A DNA stretch of 64,000 bases from Emydura subglobosa (taxonomy: Eukaryota; Chordata; Testudines; Chelidae): assembly GCA_007922225.1 (NCBI GenBank), contig ML680053.1:23162061-23226060 (forward strand), given 5' to 3'. The notes under the pieces were generated by a model. It worked only from the letters and a program-made list of their open reading frames with translations, was not told where the DNA came from and did no database searches. Positions 3,491 through 27,366 of the stretch are shown here, one piece after another; position 1 is the stretch's first letter, and each line of letters begins with the position of its first letter. A program made the translations under genes and the position numbers.

Positions 3491-4051
3491 CAGGACTAAT
3501 GGGAAGTTTAAGCAAAAGCTCTATCAGCAACAATTTAAGGGAAGAAAAGTTCATAGGAAATATAAGCTACAGTACACTTTGGAACTGTATCCTCACCAAG
3601 ATAAAACTGCATCTGTTACAGTTCATGAAAGATATTCATCCTACAGATTTTTTATGGATGGATTTGAAACAATTTCTCTGCATGCTGTGCTAGCCTAGCA
3701 TTCCTAATTATCTAGGCTTGCTATTCAGACTGATGACATGTATGAAGGGTTCTGTTTTCCATCAAGTCATTCTTCTCACAGCACTGATAGCTTGATAATT
3801 AAGTAGCATTATCTGATCCTGAATACAGATGATTTATAGGAGTTATTTTTAATAAACAATTTAGAATGTATTGAAAACAAAAAGAGTTTGGTAAAAAAGT
3901 ATTTGTCTTTTTATCACATCTGCTTTCTTTCCTTTGCCTTAATCTGAAAAAAAAAAAAGTTCTTCCATTCAGCCCTCCTATTTGCTCGGTTGTTTTTTAT
4001 AATACCAGTATTACTGATAGATCTTTTGCTTAAACCTTCCCATTAGTCCTG
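3491..4051. mobile_element. Tc1/mariner-like non-autonomous element (561 bp)
   Basis: Terminal inverted repeats of about 35 bp: the left end caggactaatgggaagttta is repeated in inverse at the right end, running inward through gcaaaagctctatcag with one gap and a few mismatches. Both ends are flanked by TA (3489-3490 and 4052-4053), the target duplication of Tc1/mariner elements. The TIR also resembles Tc1-type ends in its CAG start and GGAAGTTTA segment. The inside has an open frame of about 64 codons from 3499 but no DDE-transposase motif, so it is probably a MITE. Superfamily assignment is inference. Confidence 0.6.
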
Positions 4052-4053
4052 TA

Positions 4054-6196
4054 ATTTAGGCCTGGTGTCCTAAATGCTACTCCCTTTGTGAAAAGAAATG
4101 AAAGATTCTTAAAATAAATAAACTGAAGGTAACTGGGACTGTGAGAAACTGTCTGAGGTCATATATACTAGTGGCGCATGTTCAATAATCAATTTATCAC
4201 AAAACACATTACATACTTGAAAGCCAGCATTCATTTTCTAGTTAAAGTATTTACCAGGAGCTGTGAATAGGATTATTTAGCTCCTGACAGTCAGGGCCAC
4301 CTTGGCTGTGTTTAGACTCAAGGGCACACTGATAAATAACCATGAAGATCAGACGTAGCATGTTGTCATCCCCAAGTACAGAACTGCTTTACGCAGAATA
4401 AGTGTTACAGTGTGGAACATCTTTTATATGCACTGTAGCATGATAATTTCACATTACCTTAAAGGGTCGTTTCAATTTCTTTCATTATGGGCCAAGTCCT
4501 GGTACCTGGTGCAAAGCTTGAATAAAAGGCTTTGTGCAACAAATCTTAGAGGTTGACAGAATGAATCCTTTATGACCCAGTGTGGCCATGAGCTGTCACA
4601 GTGTTCAGTGAGCTGTGCCTATCAGACCTTCCCCCGCAAGGGGTTTTGGAGCAAAATCACCACCAGCAGATGAGAATACAAAACATTTTAAAATATGTTT
4701 AAATTCAGAAAATTACCATGGGAAATATGTTTCACAAATGAACAAAATGGAGCACATCATTTTACTGAATCAGTTTTCTGGTCTCATAGGCCAAGCACTG
4801 ATTTAATAATGGAGGGTAATAGTCATTCCCCAGCCCAGGCAGAGACCTCACATAGAACCTGACATTAAATCCCACTTAAGATCTCTGAACAGGGATAAAT
4901 TTCACCTTGAAAGTAGGTCACTATTTTAGAATGAAAATGTTTAAGGAAATAGTAGACTTCTAAACTCTACCCTCAGATCTGAGGGAACCAATTCCCTTTT
5001 AACTCAGTGGGAATTGCCCGTATGTATCTAATATCTGAAGCGTTCCCTGCTCAGACCTAATATGCATCCCCAAGCAGTATGTTAGTACCATAATTTTAAA
5101 AATAATTGTATTTAGTTAGTTAGTTAGTTTAGTTTAGTTAATTTTTGAGGAAACCATTGACTGCCACTGGTCCTACTATTTAAATGTGACCTGGGCAATA
5201 ACATTCTACATTATGAGATTTCCTATTATTAGGGCTATTGAAAATAAATGATTAGGCTGTTCAACATCTACATTTGAGGCTCATTATCTAAAACTATGTC
5301 TGGTGCTTTGTACAATTTATTTCAGTAAATAAGTATACCTGAAGTTCCTTTCTTGATAAAAATTAAAATCTCATTCTTCTACTTGGTTTGCATTTGTCGA
5401 TACATTGGATTAATTGAGGTTTTTTTACACTGGAGATCTACCACTCCCTCTCTCAGCCTTCAAAAAGATTTAGTCCTGGGACTGTCTCACCAATTAGACC
5501 ATCAGTCTCATTAAGGTTCTCAAAGGATTGCTTTGTTCTGGGGAACACATTTTGTTTTCCATGGTATTTTGCTCTGTGGTGAAACTATAATATGTAAGTA
5601 TGATGCAGCTATGTTTACTTGATTACATGAAACTGATCATCTTCAAGAAAAATCCAGACATAATTTCACCTCTCTATTACAGATGGGTTATTTGGAAATC
5701 ATGCTGCAGTTAGTATTACAAAATTTGGGATAGATTAAATCAAACAATCTCTTGCTCATTGACATTTTCTCCAATGGCTCCACTAGTCCCAGGGATGTTC
5801 AACTATTTCCCTGAAGGCTAGAATAGCAGGTATTCCTTTACTTCTTGGGCTTTGTGAAGAAGCCATGTTTTATGCTACTTTTTGCAACAGATGTCATTCA
5901 CCCAGGCAGGTCCATAATCCAGCTGCAGAGGTGATTGTTGCAACTGCAGAAGTTACTCTTGGACATTTATTTTTCATGTGAAAGAAGACACGGATTTAAG
6001 GCCCAGTACAAATCCCAGACTAAAGTCAATAAGAGTATTTGCATTGACTTCAATGGGAGATAGATATGCCCTTATTGCCAAATAAGGATTGGTAGTCCAT
6101 TTCCTGAAAAAGTACAATTACTACATATGCCCTGATTAAGTTGGTGACAGCTAAATATAATTGCCAGCATCTCCTTATCTACCTGTGTGAATCTAG
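4054..6196. other. Unassigned noncoding DNA with a TTAG microsatellite
   Basis: Contains a short (ttag)n run at about 5110-5140 and a half-hairpin MITE fragment near 6000-6066 (actaaagtcaataagag / gacttcaatgggag). Otherwise no recognisable element or exon. Confidence 0.45.
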
Positions 6197-20105: not shown

Positions 20106-20190
20106 GTAGCTCCTAGGGCTAGCTTTACTATATTCACAGCCTTCCCTTCATTATATTTAGCTGCTTTATTATATTCAGCAGTAATGCAAG

Positions 20191-21262
20191 GATGAATGGA
20201 CTATAAAATGGATAGAGAGCTGGCTAGATCATCAGGCTCAACGGGTAGTGATCAATGGCTCCATGTCTAGCTGGCAGCTGGTCACAAGCGGAGTGCCCCA
20301 GGGTTTGGTCCTAGGGCCGGTTTTGTTCAACATCTTCATTAATGATCTGGAGAATGGGGTAGATTGCACCCTCAGCAAGTTTGCAGATGACACTAAGCTA
20401 GGGGAAGTGGTAAATACCCTGGAAGGTAGGGATAGGATATAGAGGGACCTAGACAAATTGGAGGATTGGGCCAAAAGAAATCTGATGAGGTTCAAGAAGG
20501 ACAAGTGCAGAGTCCTGCACTTAGGACTGAAGAATCCCATGCACAGCTACAGACTGCGGACCGACGGGCTAGGCAGCAGTTCTGCAGAAAAGGACCTGGG
20601 GGTAACAGTGGATAAGAAGCTGGACATGAGTCAGCAGTGTGCCCTGGTTGCCAAGAAGGCTAATAGCATATTGGGCTGCATTAGTGGGAGCATTGCCAGC
20701 AGATTGAGGGAAGTGATTATTCCCCTCTATTCAACATTGGTGAGGCCGCATTTGGAGTATTGTGTCCAGTTTTGGGCCCCCCACTACACAAAGCATGTGG
20801 ACAAGTTGGAGAGAGTCCAGCGGAGGGCAACAAAAATGATTAGGGGCTGGAGCACAAGACTGAGGGAACTAGGCTTGTTTAGTTTGCAAAAGAGAAGAAT
20901 GGGGGGGCGGAGGGGGGATTTGATAGCAGCCTTTAACTACCTGAAAGGGGGTTACAGAGAGGATGGAGCTAGACTGTTCTCAATGGTAGTAGATGACAGA
21001 ACTAGGAGCAACGGTCTCAAGTTGCAGTGGGGGAGGTCTAGGTTGGACATTAGGAAAAAGTTTTTCACTAGGAGGGTGGTGAAGCACTGGAATGGGTTAC
21101 CTAGGGAGGTGGTGCAATCTCCATCTTTAGAGGTTTTTATGCTGCGGCTTGCCAAAGCCCTGGCTGGGATGATTTAGCTGAGGTTAATCCTGCTTTGAGC
21201 AGGGGGTTGGACTAGATGACCTCCTGAGGTCCCTTCCAACTCTAATATCTATGATTCTGTGA
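20191..21262 (+). pseudogene. CR1 LINE 3' half with one in-frame stop
   Basis: The plus strand reads continuously from 20191 to the ORF2 stop at 21175-21177 (ending ALAGMI), interrupted only by one TAG at 20440-20442. RT motifs in order: [20 protein letters not shown], catalytic FADD (20380-20391), [33 protein letters not shown] and [14 protein letters not shown] 3' UTR of about 85 bases follows and ends in the CR1 terminal repeat tctatgattctgtga. The 5' truncation is typical of CR1. Low decay suggests a younger insertion than most repeats here. It lies inside the split LTR-like copy A, so it, or a larger insert holding it, arrived after that repeat. Confidence 0.93.
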
Positions 21263-22113: not shown

Positions 22114-22225
22114 AACACAGGCCCCTCCAGTTCATGTCCAGCTGAGCGCCATCTCTAATTAGTTCTTGTTCCCTGGCTCCTCCTTCAGGTGCAGCCTCAG
22201 TGGTTAAGTGGCCTACCTAGCTACA
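22114..22225 (-). repeat. LTR-like repeat, copy A, second part
   Basis: cagctgagcgccatctctaa through ggctcctccttcaggtgcag and cacctag-like ctacctagcta is a direct copy of about 27220-27325. With 20001-20105 it makes one interrupted copy of the sequence that is continuous at 27106-27325. Homology ends near 22225, whereas the other copy continues with ttaaccccttcagg. Confidence 0.7.
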
Positions 22226-22364
22226 TTTGTACAGGCGTAAATACTTGTCCTTTCCAGGTTACTCTGCAGCCAGTCCACAGTCTAATCCAGTAGTCAGTCA
22301 TTTAAAAATAATCTCTAAAATCTAACCTATAAATATTTATTAAATTAAAACCAATATATATATC
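22226..22364. other. AT-rich junction sequence
   Basis: Separates LTR-like copy A from the broken 3' end of the R2-like ORF. Very AT-rich (aaatatttattaaattaaaa). No motif recognised. Confidence 0.4.
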
Positions 22365-24660
22365 TAGTTAAAAGGGGATCCATAGTTATGTTAAATAAAA
22401 CTGGGGATAAAAGGTCTCCCTGTTTCACCCCACTTCTAATTAAAATAGAATCCGTATTATCCTCACCCACACAAATCTTGGTAAAACAAACTGTATACAA
22501 ATCCCTAATTATCTCTATAAAATTCTCACAGATCTTTTTAAACCCTTTAAAATATGGCTGTGCCCCACTGAATCAAAAGCTTTGGTAAGATCAACAAACA
22601 CTACAGCAATTTCATCACCATTTCTTTTGGCTCCTTTAATTAATTTTTCTAACTTAGAGATATTCTCTTCACATCCTGGGGCAGATATAAAACCTTTTTG
22701 CTGAGGCATATTTTAACCACCATAGATAACCTCTTATTATACACTAAAATTTTAGCTCTCACCCATACAAAGCCTATAGTCAGGGGCTTCCAGGAAGATA
22801 TTTTTTTTACCTCCTGGGGATCCTGTACCTTTGGAATTAAAATAGTTCGGTTTTCTTTAAAACATCCAGGGACTTGCTTATTTAAAAACCATGTATTAAA
22901 AATCCTCGTTAAAATGCGGGTTTCTATATTAAAAGATCCCATAGGTCACTAACTTTGACCTTATCTGGGCCAGCGGCACTAGTTTTCCTAATCTCTCTTA
23001 AAGCTTCCCTAATTTCATCTGTCAATATTGGACTATTTAGGACCTCATTATCCGCTGTTTCTTTTACTGATGACCACCCTCTAGTGTTTCCACATCCGAT
23101 ATTATCTAATATATCCTTATAATATAATTCAATTTCTTGTAATGGAATACTGCATTTGGCTTTATAAGGTTCTCCCATTATAATTCTTGCCAATCTTTTC
23201 TTATCTTTCTCAAATAATGTTTGGTAAAACCTAAATTTTGCCTTTTTTGATGGATATTTCTTTTTAAATATTGTTGGATGCCTATCCCCTTTTCTATATC
23301 CTTTACCTCTTTTTACCTGTTTATTATTAGCTCCAATACTAGCTTCCAAATTACCTTCATTTTCTCGAGGAATCATCAACAATTTACATAACTCCTCTAA
23401 CATTCCCCAACGACAGCTGCCATCGTGGATCGAGTCAGCAGTTTTTCTATAAAATCTAAATGATCTAAAATCTGCACACAATGTCTACCCCCACAGGACT
23501 TTAAAACCCTATCAAATAAAACCTGATCTTTCAATGGCTTTATCTTCTCCCGTGGGGGTATATCTTCTAAAATATTCCCTATCCCACCCTCACCTCCTAA
23601 AACTTCCAAATTACTTTCACTCTTTACCTTCTTTTTGGCCAAGTCTCTCCTCTTACCTGATATCTGCTTATTGGTTTTGGTCTTCAATTCTCTTTCTATA
23701 CATTAATTGATATTTCTCATTCCAGCATATTTAGCTTCAAGATGGAATAACATTTCAATTTCATCCTCAGTCCAAACTTGAGAGCGAATAGCTTTTCCCA
23801 CCACTCTAGCTTCTTTTCTTTGTACGTTTCCTACCATGGGATGTCTGTGCCTGGTGTGCTGATTCAGCCCTGATCTTGTATGGAATGCAGACCCACAGAC
23901 CGTGCAGGTGTATTTTCTATCTGAGTTGGCCACCTCCTTGGGCGTGCATCTGGGGTAATGATAAGTGATGTTGTGGTAATGAGAGTGCTTGCCACATTTC
24001 TTGCACACCACTCTAATGGCTGTACTCTTATGTATAACGTTAATATGTTTTGCCCATTTTCCAAAGGTAGATAAAATTTGAGGACATATAGGACAATTAA
24101 AACAATCAACAGGATGCTCTAAATAAAATATTCCCTCTTTATGCAAGCTACTATCCTTCAATCTAGCTACCCTATTAAGTTCTGTATTTAAATCATCCGT
24201 TAAAATATTACCTATTTCTGTAAAATCAGTTTTCACATTTTGAAAAATATTAAAATCACTAGAATCAATAAAATACGGATCATTAAATGAGTTAAAATAT
24301 TTATCATAAAAGCTAGATTTGTCTATTTCTAAGTCACCATATAAAATATTAGTAAAAACCATTGGTAAAAATGTCAAATCTAATACCTGGTTCTCACTAA
24401 AGTAGGCTTGTTCCTCCAGAACATTTTCTCTCTCTCCATCTTGGAGATCTTGTGCATCCATACAAATGGTCCCTCCCTCTTTTATTCTTTCTATAGAGTA
24501 AGGGGAGAGCAACGGTCCAGCTCTATGAATTATTCTCCTAACATATTTTACACTACTGGCCAGGGCATCAAAGCCAATAGCGGGGGCGTTGTTAACCCGG
24601 TTCAGCGCCAATCCAGTATAAAATTCAAATTCATTATTCTCTATAATTAAAAGGTATAAC
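22365..24660 (-). pseudogene. R2-clade-like non-LTR retrotransposon ORF, 3'-truncated and frameshifted
   Basis: Read on the minus strand. The N-terminal part contains three fingers: CPIC...H-x4-H (about 24090-24030), a CCHC-like CKKCGKHSHYHN...C (about 24010-23940), and CTVCGSAFHTRSGLNQH...H (about 23910-23845). A Myb-like WTEDEIEML (about 23780) follows. This CCHH-CCHC-CCHH plus Myb order is that of R2 A-clade proteins, which bind 28S rDNA. Then come KTSAAGPDKVKVSDLW, SWKPLTIGF, QQKGFISAPGCEEN, VDLTKAFDSVGH and GVKQGDLLSPVLFN (22385-22436), the RT motifs of the R2/R8/NeSL group. Sequence ends a few codons later, so YADD, the thumb and the endonuclease are lost. Breaks: an in-frame TAA at 23703-23705 and at least three frameshifts. 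No clear ATG: the open frame runs back to about 24660. Loss of the 3' end is unusual, since LINEs usually lose the 5' end. Confidence 0.82.
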
Positions 24661-24770
24661 CCTTCACAGGGGGAGACTTACCCTTACCAGGGGGAGGCTA
24701 CCCGTTACCAGGGGGGACTAACCAGTGCCTGGGGGAGTATTACCCTTACTGGGGGGGGCAGACATGTTGG
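24660..24770. repeat. G-rich tandem repeat, about 21-bp unit, 4-5 copies
   Basis: Units read cagggggagacttaccctta, cagggggaggctacccgtta, caggggggactaaccagtg and ctgggggagtattaccctta, then a shortened ggggggg copy. The array directly abuts the 5' side of the R2-like ORF and may be its 5' UTR or the edge of the LTR element. Confidence 0.75.
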
Positions 24771-25186
24771 GACTGCCCACCCCATCCGCCCCAAAGCAGG
24801 AGGGGTTCGCCCTTAGCTATCAGTTTTCCACCAGTTACCAACTCTCACCACAAGGAGGTTGCAGTTGGACTTGCCACTCAGAGGCTTTCCTCACGAGGGG
24901 TCCCTGCCAGATTAAAGCCGAGCCCTAACAGGAGAGTGGAAGAAGACTCAGCTATAGGGAGGAGATACCCTTCAGCGCGGCTCTTGCCATCTCACCCGCA
25001 ACGATTATCCTCTCCACCTTACCCTCAGGTTCCTCCAGGAGGGGACTCAATCCCTCCAACTGTCCGGGCTCGACAACTGGACAGGGTCCAGAGACACATG
25101 AATGGCCCTTAACCCCTTCAGGTCTTGTGTGGGATGGACACCCCATTGCATACTCTGCCCCTCAAGCTGGTAAACCTGGGGTGTAT
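24771..25186 (-). other. Internal part of the LTR-like element
   Basis: Lies between the tandem repeat and the coiled-coil part of the gag-like pseudogene. The minus strand has short frames only. It contains cccttaaccccttcaggtct at 25108, a direct copy of part of the right-hand LTR-like sequence (27325-27366), so a third fragment of that sequence is present. Confidence 0.45.
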
Positions 25187-26748
25187 GGATGCTGCCTGCC
25201 CTGCATGTGCCTGATCTGGGCCTGCAAGTCATCCCTTTCCTGTTCCAGGTCACCCACTATGAATAGCAGTCTGCCTTTCTCCTTCATGGTGTCCCAATGT
25301 TTTCTTTACTGCAATTCTAGGTCTCCTGCAGATTCTTGAAAGGCCTGTTCGGCAGCTACTAATTTCTCCTGTAGTACCTTTACTTGCTCCACAGAATCTC
25401 CTAGCTCCCTTTCCCTCAGGGTCTGAATTCCCATCATATCTTGCTTCGCTTCTGTGTTTATTCCTATTTGCACCTGATTCTTCTCAGGCTATGTCTACAC
25501 TACACTTCTCAGGCTATGTGTCTTATCTGGATTGACTGAGCAGTCAGTGAAAACCCGCTCAGTTGATCCAGAAGTCGACGTACTAAAACCACCTTCTCAA
25601 GTGGCGTAGTGCTGCGTCAATGGGAACGCAATTCCCGTTGGCGCAATGCAGTGAAGACGGCGCGCAGAAGAGAAGCATAGAAGTCGACGGGAGTTGACGG
25701 GAGTTACGCAAGTTTTTTGTGTATTTTTCATAACTCCGGTCAACTGCCGCCAAATCTCCGAGGTAAGTGTAGACATAGCCTCATTCCCCACCATTTTATC
25801 ATTCAACTCTGTACTACCCCCTACCGAGTGAGTGGCCTGGCCACCTGTGAGGTCCATGGTCATCACTGCCACATCTACCGTGCTGGTCTCTGGCATACTC
25901 CTGTCACTGGACACTCCCTCCTTTTTTCCTATCCCACCGGGGTCCAGGACTGCCCCTTTGCTACTCCACAGTTTCTTGAGATGGTGGTTCCTTTTTACAT
26001 GTCCGGCCTCTCAGCACCCAAAACTGACCCTCTTCCTTGTCTTGCTAGTAAGCCATGCTTCAGGCTTCTTCCACCTAGCCCCTTCTCCTCTGCTAGCCTT
26101 CTCCTCATAATTCATTTAAAGACATCCTCTCCTTTTGTACCCTTGTTGGCCACAGGCAAAACGCATGCCTCCCTTTCCTGTTCCCTCAACAGATTGGGCT
26201 TTCTTGTTTTCTTGCCTTCCAAGTAAGGCTTCTCGTCCCCATACAGGTAGGCACTCCCTTTTTAGATGTCCCCTCCACCTGCAGGCATAACACACCCTTG
26301 ACCGGACTTCTGGTCTCTTGCCCTAGTACCTCCTTTCCAGTCTCGATCTCTGCAGCCTCTGCTAATTTCTTCCCCATGAGCTTAAATAAATACAGCTGCT
26401 GTTCAGCCAGCTGTGTCAAATAGTTTTGCAGGTATAATTGTGCCTCCCACTATCTTTGCTAGTTCTCCAGCACCTGCCTCGGTGCAGCCTGGACCAGTCC
26501 CTTCTTTTTCTCAGCCCCCTTCCACAGATGCAGCAACTCTGGGGTCCAGCCTGGGAGGGTATAAATACCCTCTGCAAAAAAAGCTTCTGCGCATCGCGGC
26601 TCCATTGTCTCTTTCCCTCCCTTCCCCCCTATGGCTTTTTGCACTGCTCTTGTATCAAGGGTGTCTGCTTTATACAGTCTTTCAATCTGCCACAGTCTCT
26701 TACACTCTCCTTTTATCAGGGGAAACATCATGCCATTTTCTCTACTGA
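25187..26748 (-). pseudogene. Gag-like pseudogene with CCHC knuckle and coiled coil
   Basis: On the minus strand the N-terminal part (26745-26300) includes CKRLWQIERLYKADTLDTR, then LYLQNYLTQLAEQQLYLFK and KKLAEAAEIE, with two stops at about 26447-26456. One frame over sits a zinc knuckle, CYACRWRGHLKREC (26251-26292), which fits CX2CX4HX4C exactly. After about 450 bases and a 298-bp TIR insertion comes a heptad-like coiled coil (EQVKVLQEKLVAAEQAF, then DLEQERDDLQAQI) down to about 25190, with one stop. A retroviral-type CCHC knuckle downstream of an LTR-like repeat with a TATA box suggests the gag of an LTR retrotransposon. The parent family is not recognised, and no protease or pol remains. 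Confidence 0.6.
25485..25782. mobile_element. TIR element (aggctatgtctacac termini), nested
   Basis: The ends are inverted repeats: aggctatgtctacactac at 25486 and gtaagtgtagacatagcct at 25763-25781. The inside is CpG-rich (gtcgacg, ggcgcaatgc, acggcgcgc) and non-coding. A partial direct copy of the left end follows it (ttctcaggctatgtgtc). It interrupts the gag-like pseudogene. The terminal sequence resembles hAT-type MITEs common in reptiles. The target duplication is not clear. Confidence 0.75.
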
Positions 26749-27105: not shown

Positions 27106-27366
27106 AACCTTTCTGCTATATCCCTGGGCTACTTCCTACCTTGCCTCTTCTCACCCTGCGAGTGACTGCGACCTCATTCTCTGCAGCACCCTCCTACTTT
27201 CAGCTACTCGGCTTTATACAGACCCATCCTGTTCCTATCTAGCTGAGCGCCATCTCTAATTAGTCCTTGCTCCCTGGCTCCTCCTCCAGGTGCAGCCTAG
27301 GCAGTCAATTGGCCCACCTAGCTCCCTTAACCCCTTCAGGCCTTGTGTGTGGTGGACACCCATCAC
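27106..27366 (-). repeat. LTR-like repeat, copy B
   Basis: Continuous copy of the sequence found interrupted at 20001-20105 and 22114-22225. It extends further through cccttaaccccttcaggcct to 27366, a part also found at 25108. In the minus direction it lies upstream of the gag-like frame and contains tgtataaagc, so it is best read as the 5' LTR or promoter repeat of that element, copy A being the 3' one. Terminal TG...CA and target duplications were not established. Confidence 0.6.
27211..27220 (-). promoter_or_regulatory. TATA-like box in LTR-like copy B
   Basis: The minus strand reads tgtataaagc. Its position upstream of the gag-like pseudogene in the same direction is what one expects of an LTR promoter. 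The corresponding part of copy A is lost to the 2 kb insertion. Confidence 0.4.

What the first reader, a model, noticed from the sequence alone, without database searches (positions are those of the whole stretch)
22365..24660. R2 A-clade-like LINE lying outside 28S rDNA
The three-finger order (CCHH, CCHC, CCHH), a Myb-like motif and R2/R8-type RT blocks are directly visible. R2 elements are known for inserting at one site in 28S rDNA. Here the flanks are an LTR-like element and AT-rich DNA, with no 28S sequence. Either the lineage lost site specificity, or rDNA-derived sequence was moved, or it is a related clade with a different target.
Basis: partly seen in the sequence, partly recalled or inferred. 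Interest (0 to 1): 0.75.

Follow-up and report, generated by a model that had tools for sequence, protein, structure and literature searches.

The report
R2-type LINE escaped from ribosomal DNA
The window holds a decayed copy of a jumping element whose relatives (R2) normally insert only into ribosomal RNA genes, but in this reptile-like genome the family has spread, recently and in about two hundred copies, to many unrelated places.

Summary
Window 22223-25105 (minus strand) is one precise insertion of an R2-type LINE with CCHH-CCHC-CCHH fingers, a Myb-like motif and R2-type RT. Its coding part has one in-frame stop, four frame changes and an internal deletion that removes the end of RT and the endonuclease. 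The 'AT-rich flank' is largely its own 3' UTR. It sits in a repeat whose uninterrupted copy lies at 27218-27361. No 28S was found in the window. The own genome (1.93 Gb) holds 213-214 exact matches to the element's 3' end; sampled copies are mostly 97-100% identical, many with an intact 1260-aa ORF. Rfam found no 28S in 40 of 60 sampled loci, while a canonical R2 fragment in the same genome does touch 28S. The protein falls in a supported clade with sequences named turtle, coelacanth and shark, apart from canonical vertebrate R2. The 5' UTR fits an HDV/R2-type ribozyme, and the first 14 nt resemble the 13 nt of 28S just upstream of the R2 site, a likely fossil of rDNA ancestry. I judge it a new variant of a known kind: a non-site-specific R2 (R2NS-like) lineage in a vertebrate. 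Ribozyme activity and current mobility are inferred, not shown.

The parts
22223..25105 (-). whole R2-type insertion (2883 bp), internally deleted and decayed
   Evidence: flanks 22117-22222 and 25106-25143 are contiguous in the second repeat copy 27218-27323/27324-27361; blastn to intact copy L018: 73.9% over 2830 nt and 78.9% over 133 nt
24757..25105 (-). 5' UTR upstream of the tandem repeats
   Evidence: inside the first block aligned to L018
24840..24859 (-). ribozyme core P3-L3-P3'-P1' (ACC-TCCTTGT-GGT-GAGAGTT), decayed form of ACC-TCCTCGT-GGT-GAGAGTC
   Evidence: coordinates counted by hand from the insert position printed there
24657..24756 (-). 21-bp tandem repeats in the 5' UTR (also read through in P0001's N-terminus)
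   Evidence: family D1; P0001 N-terminus VSFPLER repeats
23703..24650 (-). N-terminal coding part: three zinc fingers and Myb-like motif; in-frame TAA at its end
   Evidence: the start is approximate
22363..23702 (-). RT coding part up to GVKQGD..SPVLFN..MDPLLTR, with four frame changes
22348..22369 (-). zone of the internal-deletion junction (loss of the end of RT, thumb, CCHC and endonuclease)
   Evidence: homology to L018 jumps from ref 3948 to 5589 (coordinates converted)
22223..22348 (-). 3' UTR, ending ...GTATTTACGCCTGTACAAATG(T)
   Evidence: 22226-22348 is 78.9% identical to the 3' end of L018
22117..22222 (+). target repeat, left part
   Evidence: aligned to 27218-27323
25106..25143 (+). 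target repeat, right part
   Evidence: aligned to 27324-27361
27218..27361 (+). uninterrupted copy of the target repeat (empty site)

Best explanation
This is a dead, internally deleted member of a dispersed, non-site-specific R2-type LINE family. Shown here: the family's protein has R2-type fingers, Myb-like motif, RT, CCHC and endonuclease; copies are many, near-identical and scattered; 5' ends are variable or truncated while the 3' end is fixed; there are no target-site duplications above control; the 5' UTR fits an HDV/R2-type ribozyme descriptor. Inferred: a transcript, made by read-through or from an own promoter, self-cleaves at the ribozyme. Its 3' UTR is bound by the protein, the endonuclease nicks chromosomal DNA with little sequence demand, and target-primed reverse transcription starts at the 3' end. 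Second-strand priming by chance microhomology gives the ragged 5' ends. The ancestor sat in 28S with a ribozyme cleaving 13 nt upstream; that 28S leader (GACTCTCTTAAGG) stayed on the RNA and became a fixed part of the element (GGCTCTCTTAATGG), so self-processing no longer needed rDNA. Internally deleted copies, including this one, probably arise by template jumping.
For: Own genome: 36 near-full-length copies scored (of 18854 first-look candidates) on 27 contigs; 214 and 213 exact 3'-end words, reversed-pattern control 0. Median identity 99.76% to L018 over 4175 nt in 29 loci, L018 included; 26 of 29 with the full ORF (loci chosen by best score). 17 of 30 loci start within 12 bp of each other at the 5' end, 13 start further in, and the 3' ends agree. 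No TSD: mean 2.07 against 2.03 for mismatched flanks, 28 loci. 0 Rfam hits in 40 of 60 loci, while a canonical R2 piece on contig C810 of the same genome is followed by LSU rRNA at 4.2e-27. Tree: 19-row clade 100/99 with turtle, coelacanth and shark rows, canonical vertebrate R2 21 rows 99/91; window + L018 97, five rows of the window's group 100 (SH-aLRT). Ribozyme descriptor met with P1 GGCTCTC/GAGAGTC, P3 ACC/GGT, L3 TCCTCGT, P4 CTGG/CCAG, P2 CCGC/GCGG; 8 of 1000 shuffles pass. The core CCTCCTCGTGGT is in the Drosophila R2 ribozyme primer of PMC3414825. Leader against 28S: 3 of 200000 shuffles as good. An R2 ribozyme cleaving 13 nt upstream in 28S is on record (jewel wasp, PMC3774820).
Against: Ribozyme activity, expression and mobility are not tested. 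The ribozyme P2 and P4 are only 4 bp; an earlier, looser descriptor gave a different fold that 13 of 300 shuffles also met, and a search on the window copy gave one fold where 28 of 60 shuffles did as well. The 28S leader is 14 nt with one substitution and one insertion; the contiguous 28S 13-mer is partly recalled (GACTCTCTT is, AAGG^TAGC). The branching between this clade and canonical vertebrate R2 is open, and that tree's outgroup was not one side of any branch. The insertion sites of the shark and coelacanth members are unknown; PMC5035012 names a coelacanth R2 (R2-1_LCh) that could belong here and could be in 28S. A weak 3'-flank bias (T at position 3 in 47 of 57, few C at 7-8) means some target preference may remain. 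Copies inside rDNA arrays missing from the assembly would not be seen.
Confidence: 0.87

Rival explanations
1. A rare off-target insertion of an ordinary 28S-specific R2: the family lives in rDNA and this copy is a stray, guided by a short 28S-like word (TTAAGG^(T/G)AGC at the window junction).
For: The empty site reads TTAAGG|GAGC on the element's strand, 9 of 10 with the R2 core; words within 1 mismatch of it occur 5 times in 128 kb of positions. R2Tg off-targets in human cells share 4-5 nt downstream with the donor's 28S homology (PMC12222951). One canonical R2 copy in this genome lies outside recognisable 28S at TAGC (L061).
Against: Over 200 near-identical scattered copies; only 5 of 57 young 3' flanks have TAGC starting in the first 12 nt, about 3 expected by hand. 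The upstream TTAAGG also aligns with the element's own 5' end TTAATGG, i.e. microhomology. No young copy beside 28S in 40 loci.
Confidence: 0.06
2. A Utopia- or NeSL-type element (another RLE clade with one to three fingers and dispersed copies in crocodilians).
For: Utopia families are dispersed in crocodilians and can have one to three N-terminal fingers (PMC4640811).
Against: A Myb-like motif is present, and PMC13188248 files proteins without Myb as Utopia. P0001 scores 772 bits with the R2 protein 9nl2 and 292 with Bombyx R2; no Utopia protein was available to compare. R2-type ribozyme core. No U2 or other Rfam RNA in 40 loci.
Confidence: 0.03
3. A site-specific element with a new dispersed target, for example a common repeat.
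For: Weak bias at 3' flank positions 3-8; the window copy and, judged by eye, L026 and L046 sit in repeats.
Against: 57 distinct flanks without a shared word; the repeat targets seen (the window's repeat; CR1, by eye) are different sequences.
Confidence: 0.08

Closest known systems
R2NS-1_SMed (planarian) and R2NS-1_CSi (liver fluke), PMC5035012
   Same: R2-clade elements with non-specific flanks and some copies over 98% identical to their consensus
   Different: they belong to R2D and R2C; this one has the three-finger architecture and groups with vertebrate sequences; whether they carry a 28S leader was not looked at here
Canonical vertebrate R2 of lineage A (Platysternon, Taeniopygia; PDB 9nl2, 9dou)
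   Same: finger order, Myb, RT, CCHC and RLE; the R2Tg ZnF1 contact residues Gln312 and Arg315 (PMC12222951) are kept, by eye against with numbering
   Different: 35-40% protein identity over the parts aligned, separate clade, insertion not in 28S in the loci tested
Non-site-specific R2-homologous elements of sponges, PMC13188248
   Same: fingers plus Myb, variable non-28S flanks
   Different: sponge hosts; the one row here with a sponge-style name (P0268, Em0007g1082a, species recalled) is a long branch outside this clade
BLAG of the German cockroach, PMC7650587
   Same: R2-related and dispersed
   Different: described as a separate clade close to the R2 superclade
R2 SIDEs of Drosophila, PMC3414825
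   Same: 5' and 3' parts kept with the inside deleted
   Different: the Drosophila R2 SIDE is a 28S-targeted family; here 6 of 30 sampled copies each have their own breakpoints, 3 of them with a complete 5' end

Membership tests
R2 (canonical) | R2-type RT and RLE protein | tested here: met
   P0001 aligns from fingers to RLE with 772 bits to 9nl2; L018 has a complete ORF
R2 (canonical) | N-terminal fingers in CCHH-CCHC-CCHH order (lineage A) and Myb | tested here: met
R2 (canonical) | insertion at AAGG^TAGC in 28S rDNA | tested here: not met
   0 LSU matches in the window and in 40 of 60 loci; positive control L062
R2 (canonical) | HDV-like ribozyme at the 5' end | tested here: inconclusive
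   fold descriptor met in L018, 8 of 1000 shuffles pass; no cleavage assay
Non-site-specific R2 (R2NS) | R2-clade RT | tested here: met
   labelled R8, R9, NeSL, HERO and R4 rows absent, so 'R2 rather than a sister clade' rests on the canonical R2 and Bombyx R2 rows
Non-site-specific R2 (R2NS) | near-identical copies with unrelated flanks | tested here: met
Utopia | no Myb domain; U2 snRNA-linked insertion | tested here: not met
   Myb-like motif present; no U2 match in 40 of 60 loci
NeSL, HERO, R4, R8, R9 | position in the RT tree with labelled members | not tested
   no labelled sequences came up in the searches
SIDE (short internally deleted element) | 5' and 3' ends of an R2 kept, inside deleted | tested here: met
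   window copy and 3 of 30 consecutive copies with complete 5' ends, 3 more also 5'-truncated; whether any such copy re-mobilised is not tested

The most novel reading that the evidence does not exclude
A vertebrate R2 lineage escaped rDNA by turning the 28S leader of its self-cleaved transcript into a permanent part of its own ribozyme. That freed its 5'-end processing from rDNA co-transcription while the protein's target recognition relaxed, and the family became an ordinary genome-wide LINE that is still, or was very recently, active. The shark and coelacanth members may be dispersed too.
Probability: 0.5. Interest if true: 0.78.

Novelty: new variant of a known kind. Interest (0 to 1): 0.64.

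Why it matters
R2 is the textbook site-specific retrotransposon and the base of rDNA gene-insertion tools. A natural relative that inserts at many unrelated places, keeps the R2Tg ZnF1 contact residues and carries what looks like a fossil of the 28S target makes it testable which protein parts set site specificity and how an rDNA element can leave rDNA. It also warns that an annotated turtle protein (a 'PDE3B isoform') can be this kind of LINE.

Tried and rejected
Rejected or weakened readings. (1) My own first idea, that the insertion kept a preference for the 28S core TTAAGG^TAGC, came from the window junction. Young copies do not show it, and the upstream word aligns with the element's own 5' end. 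(2) A first ribozyme descriptor on the window copy and a looser one on L018 gave folds that many shuffles also met; the reported fold comes from the third descriptor, written after I had seen the core sequence, so choice after the fact is involved. (3) The 3' UTR of the window copy does not fold better than shuffles (z 0.23). (4) L059 looked internally deleted but holds a run of N and was dropped from that count. (5) L023 is the same insertion as L022 and was dropped; L008 was also dropped. Four long or uncertain rows (P0268, P0131, P0012, P0123) were dropped from the tree. (6) Scans of viral contigs and genome contigs with P0001, and of viral contigs with alignment A1, found no relative.

Full report
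What is in the window. On the minus strand, an ORF at 24677-23703 carries three zinc fingers in the order CCHH, CCHC, CCHH followed by a Myb-like stretch. It matches the R2 proteins of solved structures (9nl3 3.4e-18; 9dou, R2Tg, 3.5e-18; 9nl2 1.2e-10). The next open piece (23484-22924) matches the same three at the start of RT. Further RT pieces follow in other frames. Against P0001, a 1291-aa protein from painted turtle, five pieces run from window 24803 to 22363 with 46-79% identity and four frame changes; one stop interrupts the coding part at 23703. The match stops just after GVKQGD...MDPLLTR, before the FADD box. The copy is dead.

Borders. The flanks 22117-22222 and 25106-25143 are two parts of one repeat that lies uninterrupted at 27218-27361; they meet exactly at 27323|27324. 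So the insertion is 22223-25105, 2883 bp, without a visible target-site duplication or loss. The flank itself is a repeat present twice in the window.

The family. A protein search with the pieced window protein returned P0001 (56% identity over the whole query) and further vertebrate sequences. Searching the window's own genome (1.93 Gb, 1268 contigs) with P0001 gave 36 near-full-length copies at 61-62% identity on 27 contigs; only 36 of 18854 first-look candidates were scored. Thirty were fetched. They share one 3' end (...GGTATTTACGCCTGTACA); 17 of 30 start within 12 bp of one another at the 5' end and 13 start further in, one of them (L008) with its 5' part inverted. Over 4175 nt, 29 loci (one duplicate dropped) have a median identity of 99.76% to L018 (97.2-100%, L018 included), and 26 of 29 keep the full ORF of at least 1260 aa. 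These loci were the best-scoring ones, so intactness is overstated for the family. An exact 22-base word from the 3' end occurs 214 times genome-wide (102 + 112), its reversed control 0 times (100 places listed). An 18-base word, also present in the window copy, occurs 213 times, control 0. The 5' leader word occurs 40 times, control 0. Thirty more loci, the first ones listed on contigs C1 and C2, match L018 at 96.5-100% in their 3' block; the lowest block seen was the 5' part of L044 at 94.6%. The window insert aligns with L018 in two blocks, 73.9% over 2830 nt and 78.9% over 133 nt, which jump from ref 3948 to 5589. It is an older, internally deleted relative of the young copies.

Where they insert. 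Rfam finds nothing at gathering score in the window, in 20 of the first 30 loci or in 20 of the second 30; the other 20 of the 60 loci were not scanned with Rfam. A positive control was possible. Canonical turtle R2 (P0061) finds three places of old, broken pieces (C21, C8, C810) among its 68 listed matches, the rest being this family at 36-40%; 35 of 16108 candidates were scored, so more may exist. The piece on contig C810 is followed by 28S (LSU 4.2e-27), readable as ...GGGTTATAAAACAAGCAAATGCCTCATCATCTAATTAG. Among 57 distinct 3' flanks of this family I see no shared word. Position 3 is T in 47, positions 4-5 are A-rich (32 and 35), positions 7-8 have 3 and 2 C, and TAGC starts in the first 12 nt in 5 of 57, where about 3 would be expected by hand. 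There are no target-site duplications above a mismatched-pair control (2.07 against 2.03, 28 loci).

Which lineage. In a careful tree of 70 rows (68 of 278 proteins found, plus the window fragment and Bombyx R2) the window joins a clade of 19 rows at 100/99 with rows named Chrysemys, Gopherus, Latimeria, Chiloscyllium and Scyliorhinus, a bacterial MAG row (contamination) and some metagenome rows. Canonical vertebrate R2 (21 rows, with Platysternon, Chrysemys, Caretta, birds and ray-finned fish) is a separate clade at 99/91. A quicker tree of 67 rows with L018 added gives window + L018 97, the five rows of the window's group 100, the 20-row clade 100, canonical 100 (SH-aLRT). How the two clades join is open and 81 in the first tree. 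Six shark members come from different contigs of 0.25 to 11.5 Mb, which hints at dispersal there, but their flanks were not available.

The ribozyme and the 28S fossil. Full-length copies begin (T)GGCTCTCTTAATGGCTTTTCATG.... A descriptor for the HDV fold is met in the 5' UTR of L018: P1 GGCTCTC/GAGAGTC, P3 ACC/GGT around L3 TCCTCGT, P4 CTGG/CCAG, J4/2 GCTGATC, P2 CCGC/GCGG; 8 of 1000 dinucleotide shuffles also pass. The core CCTCCTCGTGGT is the same as in a Drosophila R2 ribozyme primer of PMC3414825 (passages seen), an identity the shuffle test did not use. The P1' strand GAGAGTC is the exact complement of 28S GACTCTC. PMC3774820 (first part of the text and passages seen) reports R2 ribozymes that use 28S as the 5' strand of P1, including one that cleaves 13 nt upstream of the site. 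The first 14 nt of the element align with those 13 nt of 28S with one substitution and one inserted T; 3 of 200000 shuffles do as well. The simplest account is that the ancestor sat in 28S and the leader was kept. The same paper explains ragged 5' ends by microhomology priming, and the window's 5' junction (TTAAGGG in the target, TTAATGG in the element) fits that.

Internal deletions. Six of 30 copies taken in listed order on contigs C1 and C2 join a 5' part to the last 125-330 bp, with different breakpoints and, by eye, a few shared bases at several of the joins; three of the six have a complete 5' end. A seventh candidate contained N and was dropped. The window copy has the same build. This resembles the SIDEs of Drosophila R2 (PMC3414825), but here looks like repeated independent events, probably template jumps.

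What is known. PMC5035012 (passages seen) describes two non-specific R2 families (planarian, liver fluke), states that jawed-vertebrate R2 fall in R2A3 and R2C, and names a coelacanth R2 (R2-1_LCh) whose relation to the Latimeria rows here I could not test. In the passages seen of PMC13188248 non-28S R2 homologs are reported from sponges. PMC7650587 (passages seen) has the cockroach BLAG. PMC4640811 (passages seen) has Utopia, dispersed in crocodilians. PMC12180492 and PMC12222951 (passages seen) give the R2Tg and PlaMe structures and R2Tg off-target sites. In the listings of my paper searches and the passages I read I saw no non-site-specific R2 lineage in vertebrates. Repbase, most subscription papers and preprints were not searched, so an entry may exist there.

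Verdict. The finding is real, and its main reading (an R2-type element outside rDNA with lost specificity) is supported at family level. It is a new variant of a known kind. The dispersal, the protein make-up and the clade are shown. The ribozyme fold and the 28S leader are well-supported readings of sequence. Activity, mechanism steps and the order of events are inferred.

Noticed in passing
P0001, Chrysemys picta bellii: A public protein named cGMP-inhibited phosphodiesterase 3B isoform X1 aligns almost end to end with R2-type retrotransposon proteins, and its N-terminus reads through 21-bp repeats: very likely an annotation error.
   Followed up: partly
L061 (G000:C21:17705500-17706300): A decayed canonical R2 3' end (65% protein identity to Chrysemys R2) is followed by TAGCTCTTTGC and no LSU match, so it shares TAGC with the normal site: a possible natural off-target insertion of canonical R2.
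   Followed up: partly
G000: Only three places with broken canonical R2 pieces are among the scored matches in this assembly; the rDNA lineage may be extinct here, or the rDNA arrays are missing from the assembly.
   Followed up: partly
G000:C1:41588830 and 41588853: Two copies of the 23-bp 5' leader in tandem, reminiscent of the 28S-leader duplications reported at some R2 5' junctions.
   Followed up: no
L057, 3' end: The 3' end word is repeated about 30 bp downstream (GGGTAGGTATTTACGCCTGTACAA), perhaps a slip or a nested start of reverse transcription.
   Followed up: no
L008: The 5' part of this copy is inverted relative to the rest, like twin priming in L1 (comparison recalled).
   Followed up: no
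P0002 (Gallicola MAG) and P0171 (Aeromonas popoffii MAG): Bacterial MAG records carry R2-type retrotransposon proteins that group with vertebrate ones: probably host contamination.
   Followed up: partly
window 25486-25781: A 16-bp perfect inverted repeat (AGGCTATGTCTACACT) bounds about 300 bp beside the R2 element, like a miniature DNA transposon of hAT type (family name recalled).
   Followed up: no
window 20190-21262: A CR1-type LINE 3' part (recognised from memory; RT-like match) lies between parts of the repeat family that holds the R2 element: nested insertions.
   Followed up: partly
L022 and L023 (contigs C36 and C620): The same insertion with the same flanks on a 24.5-Mb and a 61-kb contig: perhaps a duplicate haplotype in the assembly.
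   Followed up: no
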